Below are positions 1 to 20,383 of a stretch of 20,818 nucleotides of DNA, piece after piece (positions within the stretch are counted from its first letter, which is position 1; each line of letters opens with the position of its first letter). Source of the DNA: a bacterium. Its GTDB lineage: Bacteria; UBA9089; CG2-30-40-21; SBAY01. A program made the translations under genes and the position numbers. The stretch is from NCBI GenBank assembly GCA_040757115.1, contig JBFLYA010000051.1, positions 1 through 20,818 on the forward strand. The letters are read 5' to 3'. Under the pieces are notes generated by a model. That model saw nothing but the letters and a program-made list of their open reading frames with translations, searched no databases and was not told where the DNA came from.

Positions 1-235
1 ATTTTGATTTTTGATTTGTAATTTTACATTTTGATGTTTGATTTTTAATTTATTTTATGGTATTCCAGAAAAGTGGAAGTTAATTTTGCAAAAACCATAA
101 GGTTCGCACTACATTTATCGAATGTCATAGGTTACTTCGTGTCCATTTGTAGCTAATTTCTCTAATTCTCTGTGAACTCTGTGCCTCTGTGGCTGAATGC
201 TTACGGGTTGACGATTTGAAAGGGAGGTAATTTTT
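1..235. repeat. Left-edge intergenic repeat block
   Basis: There is no gene here. Bases 1-56 are a degenerate T-rich stretch built from TTTGATTT-like words, resembling the GAATTTG-type stretch near 20470-20545. Bases 99-214 are a copy of a dispersed repeat, recognisable by GGTTCGCACTACATTTA at 101 and CTCTGTGAACTCTGTGCCTC near 169. It matches the reverse complement of 20133-20248 with only scattered differences. The repeat stops about 20 bases before the first start codon, so it replaces or contains the leader of the operon. I see no convincing sigma-70 promoter in it. Confidence 0.75.
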
Positions 236-862: not shown

Positions 863-2953
863 ATGAAGAAAAAAATTATACCTTTAATTTCTTTAGTCTG
901 TATTTTAGCATATAACAATATATTTGCTCAACAATTACTCTCATTTATTGGAAAATGGCCTGACGATGCTATTATTTATCGATTTAATTCACCAGGTGAT
1001 ATAGGTGTTGATTCACAAGGTAATGTTTATGTTGTAGATACCGCAAATCATCGCCTTCAAAAATTTGATTCTATGGGAAATCTAATTACCATCTGGGGGA
1101 AAAAAGGTAATAATAGAGAAGAATTCCTTGCTCCTGAAGGAATAGGTATTGATAAAAATGACAATATCTATGTAGTTGATACAGGGAATAATCGTATCCA
1201 AAAATTTAGCTCTGATGGAAAATTACTTCAGATATTTGGTAGTTTTGGGGACGATTATGGTGAATTCAAATTACCGCAGGATATTGTTGTTGATTCAGAA
1301 TTTAATATTTATGTTCTGGATACAAATAATAATCGTATCCAAAAATTTAGTAATACAGCCGCTTTCCTTATGGCGTTTGGCGGTTATGGAACCGAAACCG
1401 GGAAATTCTCCAGTCCACAAAGTATAACTTTAGATATAAATGATTCTATCTATGTTGCGGATACAAATAATAATCGTATCCAGAAGTTTGATAAAAACGG
1501 TAATTTTATACGAAGTTGGGGCATAAAAGGAAATCAAGACGGTGAGTTTGATTACCCAACAGGAATAAATGTGGATAAAATTACCGGGCAGATTTATGTC
1601 GTTGATACGACAAATAGACGAATACAGGTTTTTGATGTAAATGGTGGTTTTGTGAAAAAATTTGGGGAAAGAGGTGAAGGATTAGGAAAATTCGAATCTC
1701 CTAAAGGAATAGTTATTAACAGTTCAGGTAATGTATATGTCTCAGATAAAGTAAATAATTGTATTCAAAAGTTTGATGAAACAGCTACTCCTCTTGAGAT
1801 GTGGAGTGAATATAGTTATGAGCCAGGAAGGTTCAATTCTCCATTTGGGATTGATAGGGATTCTCAAAATAATATCTATGTCGCTGATTCTAATAATCAT
1901 CGCATCCAACAATTTGATAAAAATGGTAATTTTATTAGATGGTGGGGTGGTAAAAGCACCCCAGTTATGGAGCCTGGTAAATTCTGGAATCCTTATGGGA
2001 TACTGGTAGATACAAAGGATAATAATCGGGTATATGTGGCGGATACGGAAAATTGCAGAATTCAAGTATTTGAAAATGGAAATTTTATCCGCAAATGGGG
2101 CAAATACGGCTCTATGGAAGGAGAGTTCATATCACCTTATGACTTAGCGGTTGATTCTACAGGCTTGATTTATGTCGTAGATAAAGATAATCAACGCATA
2201 CAGGTCTTTACTAAACAAGGTGTTTTCAAAAAACAGTGGTCCACTTTACTTAATCCTGAAACAATTAGTATCCCTGTAAATATAGAGATTGATTCTAAAG
2301 ATAAAGTCTATGTTGTGGATATTAAAAATCATTGTGTTAAAGTATATGATAAAGATGGTAATTTTATTAAAAAAATTGGTGAGAATGGACAGGATGACGG
2401 CGAGTTCAATAGCCCTTTTGGAATTGATATTGATGTAAGTGATAATCTTTATATCGTAGATAAGGGAAATAATCGAATACAGGTATTTGATGCCAATGGT
2501 AATTTTATTTCTACCTATGGACATTACGGAGATAATGATGGTGAGTTTAATTCACCAAGAGGAATTACACTTGATAATGAAAATAATATTTATATCGTTG
2601 ATACTGGAAATCAACGAGTCCAGAAGTTTGAAAATGAGATTAATCAAAATAATCCTGTTCCTAATTCAGAAATAAACGCCTATAATTTTCCAAATCCATT
2701 TAATCCTAATCTACGACAGACAACGATTACTTATACCATTGGAACAACACAACCAATCACGATTAAAATTTATAATATAGCCGGTGAACTAATTAGAACC
2801 TTACTTGATTCTGCACAACGACCAGCCGGACAATGTCAGGATAAATGGGACGGCAAAAACGATGATAATGAAATAGTCTCAGAAGGCGTTTATATCTGCG
2901 TGATTAAAACTCAAGATGCCACAACAAAGTTTAAAATTGCGGTAGAAAAGTAA
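863..2953 (+). CDS. Secreted NHL double beta-propeller with FlgD-like C-terminal domain
   Basis: The protein has 696 residues. A signal peptide (residues 1-22, ending NNIFA) is followed by twelve NHL repeats of about 45-50 residues between residues 41 and about 592. Each carries the hallmark 'G-I-x-x-D-x-x-x-N-I/V-Y-V-x-D-x-x-N-x-R-I-Q-x-F'. NHL propellers are usually six-bladed, so twelve repeats fit two propellers in tandem. Residues 603-696 are a FlgD-like Ig domain starting NAYNFPNPFNP and containing DKWDGKNDDNEIVSEGVY. Domains of this kind end many surface or secreted proteins in FCB-type bacteria and may act as export or anchoring signals. A GAGG ribosome binding site precedes the ATG. 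The next gene, a PorV-like barrel 12 bases downstream, is a plausible export partner. NHL propellers bind proteins, RNA or glycans; the ligand here is unknown. Confidence 0.9.
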   Translation: MKKKIIPLISLVCILAYNNIFAQQLLSFIGKWPDDAIIYRFNSPGDIGVDSQGNVYVVDTANHRLQKFDSMGNLITIWGKKGNNREEFLAPEGIGIDKNDNIYVVDTGNNRIQKFSSDGKLLQIFGSFGDDYGEFKLPQDIVVDSEFNIYVLDTNNNRIQKFSNTAAFLMAFGGYGTETGKFSSPQSITLDINDSIYVADTNNNRIQKFDKNGNFIRSWGIKGNQDGEFDYPTGINVDKITGQIYVVDTTNRRIQVFDVNGGFVKKFGERGEGLGKFESPKGIVINSSGNVYVSDKVNNCIQKFDETATPLEMWSEYSYEPGRFNSPFGIDRDSQNNIYVADSNNHRIQQFDKNGNFIRWWGGKSTPVMEPGKFWNPYGILVDTKDNNRVYVADTENCRIQVFENGNFIRKWGKYGSMEGEFISPYDLAVDSTGLIYVVDKDNQRIQVFTKQGVFKKQWSTLLNPETISIPVNIEIDSKDKVYVVDIKNHCVKVYDKDGNFIKKIGENGQDDGEFNSPFGIDIDVSDNLYIVDKGNNRIQVFDANGNFISTYGHYGDNDGEFNSPRGITLDNENNIYIVDTGNQRVQKFENEINQNNPVPNSEINAYNFPNPFNPNLRQTTITYTIGTTQPITIKIYNIAGELIRTLLDSAQRPAGQCQDKWDGKNDDNEIVSEGVYICVIKTQDATTKFKIAVEK

Positions 2954-2965
2954 AGGAAAAATCAA

Positions 2966-4219
2966 ATGAAAAAGATATTATTCTCTTTATTAGTTTTATT
3001 AGTTTTATTCTCTGTAACTGAGGCAAAAAGTCAAGGAAAAAGCGGAGCGACATTTCTAAAAATAGGTGTTGGTGCCAAACCGACAGCAATGGGTGGAGCT
3101 TTTGCCGCCGTCGCCGATGACTCAACAACCATCCACTATAACCCTGCCGGATTAGCCCTGTTCGAAAATAAAGAATTATCCTTTACCCATATCGCCTGGT
3201 TTGAAAAGATTAACTACGAATACTTAACTTATATCAACCCATTATCACAACTAAATTTGCCTGGTGTTTTTGCCACTAATCTGTCCTATCTTGGAATAAA
3301 TGATATTAAAGAATATGACCAAAATCAAACTTACCTTGGAGAATTTAAAGCATCCGATTTGTTACTTAATCTCACTTATGCCAGGACAATAAAACCTAAT
3401 CTTTATTCAGGACTGAATTTAAAATATGTTAATCAAAAAATTAAATCATCAAGAAGTGCCCTTGTGACAGATTTAGGATTATTATATAACACATCTATTA
3501 AAAATCTAACTTGTGGACTGACACTCCAAAATTTTCTCCCACTTTTTAATAATTTTAAAGATAACCTGCCTTATAATATTAAATTAGGTGCCTGTTACAG
3601 ATTGTTAACAAACAAAATACTCACTCTGGCAATGGATGTTGATTTACCTAACAATGATAATGGACTGAGATTACATTTAGGTGCTGAATATCGGTATCCG
3701 GAAATGGAAAATATCGCTATTAGACTGGGATATAAAACAGGTGTTGATTGTGGTAACTTAAGTTTCGGTTTTGGAGTAAATTACGATAAATATAAACTTG
3801 ATTATGCCTATTCTTCTTACAATGACCTCGGTAATGTTCATCAACTTTCTCTTAATATGAAGTTTGAAAGTTTAAAGTCGAAAGTCCAGAATGAAAGCCT
3901 AAAACCTGAAATCCAAAGTTCAGAAAACAAAATCCAAAATACTAATGTCCTCTCCCCCTCTACCTCTTCGGACTCAAAGCCCAATGTGGTTTTTGAGTCC
4001 GAAGAGAAGAGGATAATTGAATATGTCGAATCTGAAAAAGAAACGATACAAAAAATAGAAACCGTAGAAAAACCGGTCATAGAAGAATTTGAAGAAGACC
4101 AGAAACAAGAAGACCCTTTACCAGAGCCAGAATCCAAAATCCAGGATTCAGAAGAATCAGATGCTCTAAAACCTGAAGAAGTTAGAGCCAAAGTAACCAT
4201 AGGAGGAGATGAAATATGA
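2966..4219 (+). CDS. PorV/PorQ-like outer-membrane protein with acidic C-terminal extension
   Basis: The protein has 417 residues. A signal peptide (about residues 1-20) is followed by the PorV/PorQ (UPF0164) signature: GATFLKIGVGAKPTAMGGAF, then VADDSTTIHYNPAGLAL. Alternating barrel strands end at LSLNMKF, with Phe300 in the position of the usual C-terminal aromatic residue of an outer-membrane barrel. In type IX secretion PorV receives cargo with C-terminal sorting domains; PorQ is a relative. Residues 301-417 are an extra Glu/Ser/Lys/Pro-rich tail absent from the minus-strand paralogue at 8135-9073, which ends ISVGVKF. The tail DNA contains repeat-like words and a 15-bp hairpin. AAGGAA precedes the start. 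The stop overlaps the next start in ATGA, so translation of the TPR gene is probably coupled. Confidence 0.88.
   Translation: MKKILFSLLVLLVLFSVTEAKSQGKSGATFLKIGVGAKPTAMGGAFAAVADDSTTIHYNPAGLALFENKELSFTHIAWFEKINYEYLTYINPLSQLNLPGVFATNLSYLGINDIKEYDQNQTYLGEFKASDLLLNLTYARTIKPNLYSGLNLKYVNQKIKSSRSALVTDLGLLYNTSIKNLTCGLTLQNFLPLFNNFKDNLPYNIKLGACYRLLTNKILTLAMDVDLPNNDNGLRLHLGAEYRYPEMENIAIRLGYKTGVDCGNLSFGFGVNYDKYKLDYAYSSYNDLGNVHQLSLNMKFESLKSKVQNESLKPEIQSSENKIQNTNVLSPSTSSDSKPNVVFESEEKRIIEYVESEKETIQKIETVEKPVIEEFEEDQKQEDPLPEPESKIQDSEESDALKPEEVRAKVTIGGDEI
3866..4216 (+). repeat. Repeat-derived segment coding the PorV-like tail
   Basis: This in-frame segment encodes residues 301-417, downstream of the barrel-ending Phe300. 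It contains recurring words of the AATCCAAAAT type (3930-3939 and 4131-4140), CCAGAAT (3887 and 4126 areas) and TTCAGAA, read on the opposite strand as GGATTTTGGATT-like DNA. This resembles the degenerate repeats at 1-56 and 20384-20545. The encoded peptide echoes itself: ENKIQN and ESKIQD, SLKPE and ALKPE. Derivation from a dispersed repeat is my inference from word composition, not from an alignment. Confidence 0.5.
3964..4006 (+). repeat. Perfect 15-bp inverted repeat inside a coding region
   Basis: CTCTTCGGACTCAAA (3964-3978) and its exact reverse complement (3992-4006) enclose a 13-base loop. The reading frame runs through the structure without a stop, encoding about TSSDSKPNVVFESEEKR (residues 333-349). 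There is no T-run after the stem, so it is not a classical terminator. It resembles palindromic elements known to insert in frame into bacterial genes. Confidence 0.85.
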
Positions 4220-6369
4220 GATATTTAGTTTTGACCCTGACATTGCTTGGGGTAATGTTAATAATGAATAATAGGAATGTCTGCACTGAGGAAAATGCCT
4301 ATTTCTATTTTAATCAAGGAGAAAAGTATCGAGCAGAAAAAAACTATGAAGCGGCAATCTCTATGTATAAAAAGGCAATAAAATTAAATCCTGACTACGA
4401 TATCACCTACAATAATCTTGGCTGTGCTTATTATGAAAAAGGACAGTTTGATGAGGCAATTGCTAATTATAAAAAGGCATTAGAATTTAACTTAACGACA
4501 AAAGTTACACATAGTAATCTTGCCTGTGCTTATTATTATAAAGGGATGTTTGATGAGGCAATTGAGGAGTTCAAAAAGGAATTAGAAAATAACCCTGTAT
4601 GCGTTGACTCGTTAAATGGTCTTGGTTGTGCTTATTATAACAAAAAAATGTATGAGGAGGCAATAAAATGGTTCAAAAAGGCACTTGAAATTAACCCGGA
4701 TTATACCTCTGCTAAAAATAAGTTAGCCTCAGCAAAAAAGGCGATTGAAAAAGAAAATTATTGCAAATACTACAATTCAGGTATTGACCAACTATCTCAA
4801 CAAAAATATGAAGATGCCATCTCAAGTTTTAACCAGGCACTCGAATATACCACAATGGATTATGAAAAGACACTGGTAAAAGAAAAGATAAAATCTGCAC
4901 AAGACAACTTAAATAAGATAAGAATAAGAGAAAATTACTTCAGATGCTACAATTCAGGTATTGACCAGTTTGCTCAACAAAATTGGGAACAGGCAATTTT
5001 GAACCTTAATCAAGCACTTGAATACGCCGCCACCGATGAAGAAAAGATAATGATAAAAGAAAAGTTAAAATCTGCACAAATTGGTTTGAATAAACGGAAA
5101 GTTAAAGCAAACTACTGGAAGCGGTATAATTCAGGAATTGAACAGATGGCTCAAAAAAGATGGGAAAATGCCATTAATGACTTTAATAACGCCCTTAAAT
5201 ATGCCACTACCGCCGATGAAAAAGGAAAGATAACCGTCCAATTAAATCAGGCAAAAAGGTCTTTGAATGAGACAAAACGCCAGGAAACCTACCATAAATG
5301 GTATAATTTAGGAATGAGCCGAATAGCTCAAAATAGATGTAAAGATGCAATGGAAAATTTTAGTCAGGCACTTAAATACGCTATTACCGATGAAGAAAAG
5401 ATAATGGCACAAAAAAAGATAGATGAAGTCAGAACAATTCTGGAAAAATCCCAACAATCTAAAGCCATCGCCTCTTTAAAAACTCCAGAAACCCCAGTAG
5501 AGATAAAGCAAAAAGTATTAATCAAAGAAAATAAACCATGGAAATTTAATGTAAGTGATATTGCCTCGGTTTTATTGATAGTTATTTTAGGGTTATCCAT
5601 TTTGCCACAATCAAATTCTATAAAAGCAAAAATTTATCTCTGGCAAAAAAAATATGACCAAGCGGCTTCAATCTATGAAGAGGCAATATCAAAAGGGAAA
5701 AAAGTCTGGCTTTATCCAGCATTAGCAGAAATTTATCTGAAATTAGACCAGGTAGATGAAAAGGCTATAAAAGTCTATGACAAAGCGATATTCCTTGATG
5801 CCGGTAATCGAAAAATGATTAGAATTGTTGCAGATTATTATATGAAGAAAAAGAGACCCGGAGAACGAGCAATTGAAATTTTTGAAGAGGCATTAAAATT
5901 TGACCCAAATAATATTCATATATTGAATATTCTTGGAAAAACATATTGTAATTATGGAGAGGAGGCAAAGGCAATTGATGTTTTTCAAAAATTATATGAA
6001 TTAGGACATAGAGATGAAACTGTGGTAAAAAATCTGGCAAAGGTATATCTGAAAGAAGATAGATTGGATAATGAGGCAATTCCAATCTATGAGGAGGCAA
6101 TGAAATACGAACCAGAAAATCATGATTTGATTATTGCCTTGAGCCAGGCATATATAAATCAAGGAATGAGGGATAAAAGAACAGTAGATATTTACAGGAA
6201 GTCTGTTGGTTTATGCTCAAACTTAGTCAAAACTTATAAAGAAAAAAATGATTTCGATAAAGCACGGCGATACGCAGAAATAGCCTACAAAATAGTTTAT
6301 TGCTATTCATCAGGAATAGTCGATAGTTTAGTTCGCGAAAGCGTCATGGGGGTCTTGAATAAATTGTAA
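4216..6369 (+). CDS. TPR-repeat membrane protein with central transmembrane segment
   Basis: The product has 717 residues. A hydrophobic N-terminus (residues 1-18, a signal peptide or anchor) is followed by four canonical TPRs (about residues 25-160; for example NNLGCAYYEKGQFDEAI). Next come four units of exactly 59 residues (about 180-415) with the core YNSGIDQ-AQ-W--AI--FNQALEYA-TDEEK. A single hydrophobic segment (about 447-464, SVLLIVILGLSIL) separates these from a second TPR array (about 470-690). TPRs mediate protein-protein contacts, so this looks like an assembly scaffold with solenoids on each side of a membrane segment. Its start overlaps the PorV-like stop in ATGA, implying it acts with that protein (inference). 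No enzymatic motif is visible. Confidence 0.88.
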   Translation: MRYLVLTLTLLGVMLIMNNRNVCTEENAYFYFNQGEKYRAEKNYEAAISMYKKAIKLNPDYDITYNNLGCAYYEKGQFDEAIANYKKALEFNLTTKVTHSNLACAYYYKGMFDEAIEEFKKELENNPVCVDSLNGLGCAYYNKKMYEEAIKWFKKALEINPDYTSAKNKLASAKKAIEKENYCKYYNSGIDQLSQQKYEDAISSFNQALEYTTMDYEKTLVKEKIKSAQDNLNKIRIRENYFRCYNSGIDQFAQQNWEQAILNLNQALEYAATDEEKIMIKEKLKSAQIGLNKRKVKANYWKRYNSGIEQMAQKRWENAINDFNNALKYATTADEKGKITVQLNQAKRSLNETKRQETYHKWYNLGMSRIAQNRCKDAMENFSQALKYAITDEEKIMAQKKIDEVRTILEKSQQSKAIASLKTPETPVEIKQKVLIKENKPWKFNVSDIASVLLIVILGLSILPQSNSIKAKIYLWQKKYDQAASIYEEAISKGKKVWLYPALAEIYLKLDQVDEKAIKVYDKAIFLDAGNRKMIRIVADYYMKKKRPGERAIEIFEEALKFDPNNIHILNILGKTYCNYGEEAKAIDVFQKLYELGHRDETVVKNLAKVYLKEDRLDNEAIPIYEEAMKYEPENHDLIIALSQAYINQGMRDKRTVDIYRKSVGLCSNLVKTYKEKNDFDKARRYAEIAYKIVYCYSSGIVDSLVRESVMGVLNKL
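4750..5457 (+). repeat. Four tandem 177-bp units within the TPR gene
   Basis: The tyrosine codon that opens the YNSG (or YNLG) core lies at 4771, 4948, 5125 and 5302, an exact 177-base (59-codon) spacing. The DNA of the first two units is almost identical around TACAATTCAGGTATTGACCA, while the fourth is most diverged. This indicates internal tandem duplication with no length change since. Confidence 0.9.
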
Positions 6370-8134: not shown

Positions 8135-9073
8135 CTAAAATTTCACTCCTACAGAGATATAATGATTCCTGTCCAGATCTCCACGCACTAGATATGCATA
8201 GTCTAAAGAATAACCTCGTTCGACAAATCCCAGCCCAGCAGTAAAATCTTTTGTTTCATATCCAAATGCATATCCTACTCTTAGATACACATTTAATTCA
8301 CACTCTACATTTAAATATTCCATTCCCACATGAGTTTTAATATCATCTCCTTTAGGTTTAACTAAATCTACACCTAAAAGAATATTGTTTGCATTTGGAA
8401 GTAGAAATTTATAAGAAGCTCCTGCTCGTATATTGAATGGCAATGGATCTTTTTTCTCACGATATTTTACATCTGACCCAAAATTTTGTCCTGCCACCCC
8501 AAAGCTAAGATTTTCTGAAATAAGTAATAATGTCCCAAAATCTATAGCATACGCCTTTGCCTTTATCTCTTCTACCAATTCACTTTGTATCTTTTTAAGA
8601 TTAATTCCTGCTGATAGATTTTTAGTTAGTTTTAGCCCTCCAGATAGACTAATCACATAATCACTTTCTGCCTTTACCTTTCTACAGGGTTTATTCTCAT
8701 AATTAATTTCAATATCACCCACTTGCAATGTAGCAATACTTAGACCAAAGACACTATTTTCTTTCACCCTTTGTGCATAGCCTGCAAAACCATGTTTAAT
8801 ATCCAATAGAGTTGAGTAGAAGAAAGCCGCCTCCTTATGGTCAATTAATGACAAGCCTGCAGGGTTAAAGAAGATACTATCTATGCCATTTGGGCAACTA
8901 ACTCCAATTTCACCTATGCCAGATAGTCGAGCACTTGTGGGAAATTTTAGCACTACCAGAGCAGAAGTTTTATCTCCTGCTTCAGCTTGATGAGTTAATA
9001 ACATAACCCACCATATTGAAAAAACCAGGATAGTTCTTAAAATTATAAAACTTATCACTGTTATCCCCCTCAT
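8135..9073 (-). CDS. PorV/PorQ-like outer-membrane protein
   Basis: The product has 312 residues with a long signal sequence (cleavage near THQAEA, about residue 32). It carries the PorV/PorQ family pattern: TSALVVLKFPTSARLSGIGE followed by GIDSIFFNPAGLSLIDHKE, comparable to the NPAGLAL motif of the paralogue at 2966-4219. It ends ISVGVKF, a standard outer-membrane barrel terminus, and has no tail. The start codon overlaps the stop of the upstream fibronectin-III gene (ATGA), so the two are translationally coupled. By analogy with PorV it may receive or display the FlgD-domain protein encoded beside it; this is inferred from gene pairing. A start at the internal ATG (residue 24) would still leave a short hydrophobic leader but is less likely. 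Confidence 0.85.
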   Translation of the reverse strand: MRGITVISFIILRTILVFSIWWVMLLTHQAEAGDKTSALVVLKFPTSARLSGIGEIGVSCPNGIDSIFFNPAGLSLIDHKEAAFFYSTLLDIKHGFAGYAQRVKENSVFGLSIATLQVGDIEINYENKPCRKVKAESDYVISLSGGLKLTKNLSAGINLKKIQSELVEEIKAKAYAIDFGTLLLISENLSFGVAGQNFGSDVKYREKKDPLPFNIRAGASYKFLLPNANNILLGVDLVKPKGDDIKTHVGMEYLNVECELNVYLRVGYAFGYETKDFTAGLGFVERGYSLDYAYLVRGDLDRNHYISVGVKF

Positions 9074-10861: not shown

Positions 10862-10867
10862 TTTTTG

Positions 10868-10908
10868 GTAACAGGTTAGCCATCTCTCTCAGATGGCTAA
10901 ATTGTTAC
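10868..10908. repeat. 41-bp palindromic repeat, copy 1
   Basis: GTAACAGGTTAGCCATCT (10868-10885) pairs with AGATGGCTAAATTGTTAC (10891-10908) across a 5-base loop, with one G-T pair and one mismatch. It begins 7 bases after the dehydratase remnant ends and stops just before the ribosome binding site of the methyltransferase. An inverted copy lies at 15534-15574. Confidence 0.85.
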
Positions 10909-10923
10909 AAAGGAGGGATATAT

Positions 10924-15491: not shown

Positions 15492-15824
15492 GGAATTACA
15501 AGCAATGTAACCTTTGGGGGGGTAAAATAAGGGGTAACAGTTTAGTCATCTGAGAGAAATGGCTAAACTGTTACAACATCTTCATATCCACATTCCAAAA
15601 GGGATAATTATGGTCAAACCTTGATGCAACTTCATACTAAATTGGTCATTTTGATCTAAAACTTGTCATTTTAAAAAATGAAATATCAATAATATCAATG
15701 GGTTAGAAATTTAAAGTGGTGAGGTGAACGGTTACTAAAATGTGCAAGGAAATTTTACTTTCCCGTTTTCTCTCATGCTCATTTTGCCTATATCCCTTCC
15801 ACCGATTACTGATTACCTGCTTTC
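15492..15824. other. Gap between convergent operons, repeat remnants
   Basis: There is no credible gene. Besides the palindrome at 15534-15574, it contains TGAACGGTTACTAAA (15725-15739), which matches the right edge of the large repeat at 20373-20387 in 14 of 15 bases, suggesting a leftover repeat end. A short GGAAA/TTTCC stem (near 15749-15765) precedes a CGTTTT run. No strong intrinsic terminator is evident for either converging operon. Confidence 0.55.
15534..15574. repeat. 41-bp palindromic repeat, copy 2 (inverted)
   Basis: GTAACAGTTTAGTCAT (15534-15549) pairs with ATGGCTAAACTGTTAC (15559-15574), with one T-G pair and a 9-base loop. Its reverse complement matches copy 1 at 10868-10908 with about five differences, including the loop (CTCTCAGATG). 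The two copies therefore face each other around the glycan cassette. Confidence 0.85.
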
Positions 15825-20136: not shown

Positions 20137-20383
20137 GTAACCGTTAGGAATATAACCACAGAGGCACAGAGTTCACAGAGAATTAAGGAAAGTAGCCACA
20201 AATGGATACGAATTAACCTCTGACAACCCATAAATGTAGTGCGAACCTTTAAGTTCGCCTTTTGGCTTGCCAGAAGCGAAGCTAACGCCTCGCACTACAA
20301 ATCTTTTTGTATTTGTGTTCATTCGTGGTTATATATTCCTTCTGTGTTCTCTGTGACTCTGTGGCTATATCCTGAACGGTTAC
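20137..20383. mobile_element. 247-bp MITE-like element with long imperfect inverted repeats
   Basis: The ends are exact inverted repeats, GTAACCGTT (20137-20145) and AACGGTTAC (20375-20383). The similarity continues inward with CCACAGAG-CACAGAG on the left and CTCTGTG-CTCTGTGG on the right. A central pair TGTAGTGCGA (20235-20244) and TCGCACTACA (20290-20299) encloses a short core. The left arm also occurs, inverted, at 99-214. It has no coding capacity, so it would need a transposase supplied elsewhere if it is mobile. Confidence 0.7.

What the first reader, a model, noticed from the sequence alone, without database searches (positions are those of the whole stretch)
3866..4216. A PorV-like barrel carries a 117-residue tail beyond its canonical terminal phenylalanine
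The barrel ends LSLNMKF at Phe300, the position where the paralogue at 8135-9073 stops (SVGVKF). The extra acidic tail has internally repeated words at both DNA level (AATCCAAAAT twice) and protein level (ENKIQN/ESKIQD, SLKPE/ALKPE) and resembles local intergenic repeats. A terminal aromatic is normally part of the signal recognised by the barrel assembly machinery, so a tail would move it inside the protein. This may be a gene extended by repeat DNA, and the tail may contact the TPR protein encoded next.
Basis: partly seen in the sequence, partly recalled or inferred. Interest (0 to 1): 0.65.

Follow-up and report, generated by a model that had tools for sequence, protein, structure and literature searches.

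The report
Outer-membrane barrel tail from repeat DNA
A bacterial outer-membrane barrel protein carries an extra floppy tail that was partly built from short repeated DNA, one example of a habit in this little-known bacterial lineage of reading seven-letter DNA repeats as protein inside ordinary genes.

Summary
The PorV-family barrel ends at Phe300, where the family profile and the last predicted strand also end. A 117-residue acidic tail follows that matches no Pfam family and is predicted mostly disordered. The repeat-DNA idea holds for part of the tail. DNA 3858-3945 is a degenerate seven-base tandem repeat (60% identity at lag 7 against 28% in the barrel; codon-shuffle P 0.0004). It contains a 22-base word found at four other places in the genome, two of them in other reading frames read in the same phase. 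A perfect 15-bp hairpin follows. In the sister genus the same site carries a nine-base repeat, also found upstream of the gene. The tail is no recent accident: every orthologue read in the order has one, of 46 to about 300 residues, but the sequence turns over. Extensions past the barrel are ordinary here (7 of 30 paralogues, several with SH3, TPR or other domains), so the barrel-assembly argument is no anomaly. The TPR-partner idea is weak: order-level orthologues keep the tail without that gene. The wider finding is genome-wide in-frame heptamer repeats, some inside core enzymes (IleS, QueA, TrpE, PilB).

The parts
2966..4219 (+). PorV/PorQ-family outer-membrane barrel gene with C-terminal tail (417 aa)
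   Evidence: NF033709 PorV_fam 172.7 bits, cut-off 90; Foldseek top hit PorV 8gl6_F, E 6.4e-13
3830..3865 (+). last predicted barrel strand, residues 289-300, ending at Phe300
   Evidence: AlphaFold2 model; family profile ends at residue 300
3866..4216 (+). tail, residues 301-417; 31 acidic and 15 basic residues, no Cys
   Evidence: pLDDT mostly under 50; no Pfam match
3858..3945 (+). degenerate heptanucleotide tandem repeat starting at the barrel end
   Evidence: lag-7 segment score 15.2; codon-shuffle P 4e-4
3889..3910 (+). core word GAATGAAAGCCTAAAACCTGAA, read within NESLKPEI
   Evidence: 5 places in the genome, 0 for the reversed control; two others are in ORFs in the same phase: NERLKPEL, NERLKSEL
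3964..4006 (+). inverted repeat with perfect 15-bp arms inside the coding DNA; the predicted fold extends to about 3947-4014
   Evidence: z -7.1 against shuffles
3995..4090 (+). predicted helix, residues 344-375, low to moderate confidence
4126..4160 (+). second short heptamer-like stretch (AGAATCCAAAATCCAGGATTC)
   Evidence: sequence; not scored as a tract on its own
4166..4216 (+). distal end LKPEEVRAKV..., loosely shared with the sister genus (KPEEVKAEP...KAKVNLWR)
   Evidence: alignment; weak
863..2953 (+). upstream gene: NHL beta-propeller with a T9SS-type sorting domain at 2687-2944
4216..6369 (+). downstream TPR gene, overlapping by ATGA
8135..9073 (-). PorV-family paralogue without a tail
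2..51 (.). intergenic heptamer-type tract in the same window

Best explanation
The gene encodes a PorV/FadL-type outer-membrane barrel, probably a cargo-holding (shuttle-like) partner for the propeller protein encoded just upstream, which bears a T9SS-type sorting domain. After the last strand the chain turns into the periplasm as a flexible acidic tail with one possible helix. The tail is an old architectural feature of this orthologous group. Its sequence has been rebuilt separately in each lineage out of short repeat DNA: seven-base repeats plus a hairpin in this genus, nine-base repeats in the sister genus. A seven-base array whose 21-base cycle lacks a stop is read as the same seven residues in all three frames, so such DNA can be taken into a gene in any frame and is tolerated where a disordered linker does no harm. 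Shown: barrel, tail, repeat make-up, recurrence of the core word, lineage difference, tails in the orthologues. Inferred: periplasmic location, the tolerance argument, and that the tail acts mainly as a spacer.
For: Profile, model and Foldseek agree on a barrel ending at Phe300. The tail is predicted disordered and matches no Pfam family. Heptamer repeat; core word at 5 places, 3 in ORFs in one phase. Tail segment about 3902-3945 hits dozens of dispersed places in G002 and G003. Sister genus: nine-base arrays in the tail, and in G003 also upstream of the gene and in the next gene's signal peptide. Lag-7 tracts are far commoner than lags 5, 11 or 13 (211 against 0, 2, 7). In the coding tracts the sense strand is stop-free in 34 of 36 and the more hydrophilic reading in 30 of 36. 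Of 27 (AAAATCC)n arrays read, 23 lie in ORFs of 200 aa or more on the sense strand and none antisense. The tail is intact, without indels or stops, in the same-genus relative at 3.4% divergence. Upstream sorting domain over its cut-off.
Against: The tail copy is degenerate, so a low-complexity acidic linker that drifted towards such words is not fully excluded. Only about 88 of 351 bases form a scored tract. No orthologue without a tail was found, so the insertion event itself was not seen. Tail and barrel dN/dS rest on 12 and 14 differences, and the syn/nonsyn contrast is not significant (P 0.22). In CarB and TrpE the heptamer-like words sit in linkers of about the same length as in relatives, which looks like replacement or drift rather than simple insertion.
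Confidence: 0.7

Rival explanations
1. Ordinary low-complexity acidic linker: the tail evolved by normal substitution, and the heptamer look is a by-product of biased codons in an A-rich gene.
For: Most of the tail (residues about 329-417) shows no significant seven-base period; relatives have other low-complexity tails.
Against: Codon shuffling keeps codon bias and still gives P 4e-4. The core word recurs in unrelated genes and in the same phase. Perfect hairpins of this size are rare in coding DNA: 2 with arms of 14 bp or more in about 581 kb.
Confidence: 0.18
2. The tail is a docking peptide for the TPR protein encoded next, and that interaction is why it is kept.
For: The TPR gene follows directly and overlaps by 4 bases in the window, and a TPR gene follows in both sister-genus genomes. 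One paralogue fuses TPRs to the barrel (L056).
Against: Four order-level orthologues keep tails but have a large propeller-type protein gene downstream instead. The tail sequence is hardly conserved beyond the genus.
Confidence: 0.12
3. A recent read-through accident: the stop after Phe300 was lost and the frame ran into intergenic repeats; the tail has no function and is on its way out.
For: CarB of this genome shows such a case: its last residues come from another dispersed repeat, whereas the same-genus orthologue stops.
Against: All orthologues read have tails. The tail is intact in the same-genus relative.
Confidence: 0.05

Closest known systems
PorV/PorQ family (NF033709), including the T9SS shuttle PorV (PDB 8gl6)
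   Same: barrel profile, fold match, sorting-domain cargo gene next door
   Different: below the cut-offs of the PorV, PorQ and PorV2 equivalogs; tail after the last strand
Short tandemly repeated repetitive (STRR) and other heptameric repeats of cyanobacteria (Nostoc GGGGA(C/T)T, PMC4692102; STRR within rnpB, Vioque 1997, seen here only as a citation in PMC2858038)
   Same: seven-base units, dispersed, mostly intergenic, a fraction inside genes
   Different: other units, another phylum, arrays read in frame inside core enzymes and in a barrel tail
TAACTGA repeats of Beggiatoaceae (PMC4679880)
   Same: dispersed seven-base direct repeats; that paper discusses tolerance inside or at the ends of proteins
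   Different: that unit carries stop codons in one orientation; no core word
Rickettsia palindromic elements and enterobacterial RU elements inside genes (Delihas 2007, PMC2759123)
   Same: dispersed repeats read in frame within host genes
   Different: those are longer elements of defined sequence; here tandem seven-base arrays with a short core word, no sign of transposition

Membership tests
PorV/PorQ family barrel (NF033709) | score over the curated cut-off along the barrel | tested here: met
   172.7 bits against 90, residues 26-300
PorV/PorQ family barrel (NF033709) | FadL-like barrel fold | tested here: met
   model and Foldseek: PorV 8gl6_F, then FadL entries
T9SS PorV or PorQ equivalog | score over the equivalog cut-off | tested here: not met
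   PorV 70.8 of 250, PorQ 132.6 of 220, PorV2 70.3 of 325
Type IX secretion system in this genome | sorting-domain cargo | tested here: met
   46 TIGR04183 matches
Type IX secretion system in this genome | SprA translocon over its cut-off | tested here: inconclusive
   SprA-like frame of 2011 aa, 106 bits against 200
Type IX secretion system in this genome | secretion of cargo depends on the PorV-like protein | not testable with these tools
   needs genetics
Short tandem heptanucleotide repeats (STRR-like) | dispersed tandem seven-base units, enriched between genes | tested here: met
   211 tracts at score 12 or more in 800 kb; 0.58 per kb intergenic and 0.06 coding
Short tandem heptanucleotide repeats (STRR-like) | tail DNA 3858-3945 shows a significant seven-base period | tested here: met
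   degenerate copy
Rickettsia palindromic element | one long palindromic family in many genes | tested here: not met
   the tail hairpin has no second copy in the genome; the core word has only 5 places

The most novel reading that the evidence does not exclude
In this candidate phylum (named relative: Ca. Desantisbacteria) seven-base repeats are a general source of new protein sequence. Because a stop-free 21-base cycle reads as the same seven residues in every frame, arrays can be taken into any gene in any frame and become loops, linkers and tails, even in essential enzymes, and each lineage renews them with its own repeat type. The PorV tail is one such site.
Probability: 0.35. Interest if true: 0.7.

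Novelty: new member of a known kind. Interest (0 to 1): 0.5.

Why it matters
It gives a traceable case of non-coding repeat DNA becoming protein in a bacterium, at the C-terminus of an outer-membrane barrel, and points to a genome where the process can be studied in many genes at once, including aminoacyl-tRNA synthetase and nucleotide-synthesis enzymes. It also warns annotators that disordered tails and loops in this phylum may be repeat DNA.

Tried and rejected
The single-protein scan of named genomes found no relative; the alignment scan did. A TPR-docking reading was weakened by the order-level operons. An RPE-type element was rejected for the hairpin: no second copy. A recent read-through was rejected because all orthologues have tails. 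A first idea that CarB and TrpE carry clean insertions was corrected by alignment: there the words occupy linkers of similar length. In IleS and QueA the loop is longer by about 14 and 7 residues than in solved relatives.

Full report
What is there. The ORF 2966-4219 is a PorV-family barrel of 300 residues followed by a 117-residue tail. The family profile ends at Phe300. An AlphaFold2 model built from the window protein, window paralogue and 11 relatives shows strands up to residues 289-300 with good confidence; the tail is below pLDDT 50 except around a helix at 344-375. Foldseek puts PorV of the T9SS first, then FadL entries. The tail matches no Pfam family.

Repeat DNA. 3858-3945 has a seven-base period. 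Lag-7 tracts are abundant in this genome and lags 5, 11 and 13 are not. With a simple gene caller, 128 of 167 tracts scoring 14 or more are intergenic, 36 lie in genes and 3 at gene edges, i.e. 0.58 and 0.06 per kb. The word GAATGAAAGNCTAAANCCTGAA with up to two mismatches occurs at five places and its reversed control at none. Two other copies lie in ORFs, flanked by heptamer arrays, and are read in the same phase as here; the other two show no long frame. In G002 and G003 the tail segment around 3902-3945 finds dozens of dispersed (AAAATCC)n places. A perfect 15-bp hairpin lies at 3964-4006; only two perfect ones with arms of 14 bp or more lay inside genes in the 800-kb sample.

Relatives. 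The same-genus genome has the same tail without indels; over barrel and tail the nucleotide divergence is 1.6% and 3.4% (P 0.047). In G002 and G003 the tail starts at the same place with nine-base repeats. In 126 kb of G003 all four such arrays found lie on this contig: before the gene, twice in the tail, and in the TPR signal peptide. That contig's porV frame is broken near its N-terminus, perhaps by an assembly error. The order-level genomes G004-G007 have tails of about 200 to 300 residues with other repeats, after the same propeller gene, and no TPR gene next. The phylum of the window is inferred from this.

Is the tail odd? Thirty PorV-like matches in this genome gave seven proteins with extensions beyond the barrel: SH3 in three, TPR in two (one with a sub-threshold transglutaminase-like match), CHU_C in one, and the present one. 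So a chain continuing past the last strand is common here. BAM work shows that assembly signals are not confined to the last strand (PMC10945584). That OmpA has a periplasmic domain after its barrel is my own knowledge.

Likely role. The upstream gene carries a T9SS-type sorting domain. In this genome 10 of 30 PorV-like genes have such a domain less than 900 bases upstream on the same strand; I estimate about 0.15 by chance from 46 matches in 4.3 Mb. In Flavobacterium specialised shuttle proteins pair with their cargo for type B signals (PMC12618676). A cargo-holding role is therefore plausible but unproven, and the protein does not reach the PorV equivalog cut-off.

Wider pattern. Perfect AAATCCAAAATCCAAAATCC sites: 32 in G002, 25 in G003, 1 to 2 in this genus, 0 in G004-G007, 0 in controls. 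Of 27 distinct arrays in the loci read, 23 lie in sense in ORFs of 200 aa or more and none antisense; some of these loci came from the tail search, so the sample is not fully unbiased, and a stop-free array itself lengthens frames. Against solved relatives IleS has about 14 extra residues, QueA 7 and PyrC 5 at the array; PilB has heptamer words between its cysteine pairs, where relatives have a loop of other sequence. Alignment with relatives shows that in CarB and TrpE such words fill a linker of similar length.

Limits. All genomes are metagenome-assembled. Gene calling in the sample was heuristic. Counts of substitutions are small. The model used 13 sequences.

Noticed in passing
G000, 30 PorV-like loci (L031-L060); window 863-4219: Large expansion of PorV-like barrels with 46 T9SS-type sorting domains and one SprA-like frame; 10 of 30 barrels have a sorting-domain gene directly upstream, suggesting dedicated cargo pairs.
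   Followed up: partly
L127:7738-11079: CarB of this genome has a C-terminal extension made of another dispersed repeat (residues about 1087-1113 match many places in G000 and G001); the same-genus orthologue stops before it.
   Followed up: partly
L246, L276, L270, L250: (AAAATCC)n arrays read in frame as KIQNPKS in IleS, QueA, PyrC and a LarC-like gene of the sister genus.
   Followed up: partly
L123:16595-16626: Heptamer repeat between the two cysteine pairs of a PilB-type ATPase.
   Followed up: partly
L092, four nine-base arrays: All four nine-base arrays found in 126 kb of G003 lie on the porV contig, one of them encoding the TPR signal peptide.
   Followed up: partly
L038: A PorV-like barrel with a CHU_C (T9SS signal) domain at its own C-terminus.
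   Followed up: no
window 99-209 and 20139-20249: 111-base inverted repeat pair (85%) near the two ends of the window.
   Followed up: no
window 10867-10910 and 15533-15576: 44-base repeat pair, itself nearly palindromic.
   Followed up: no
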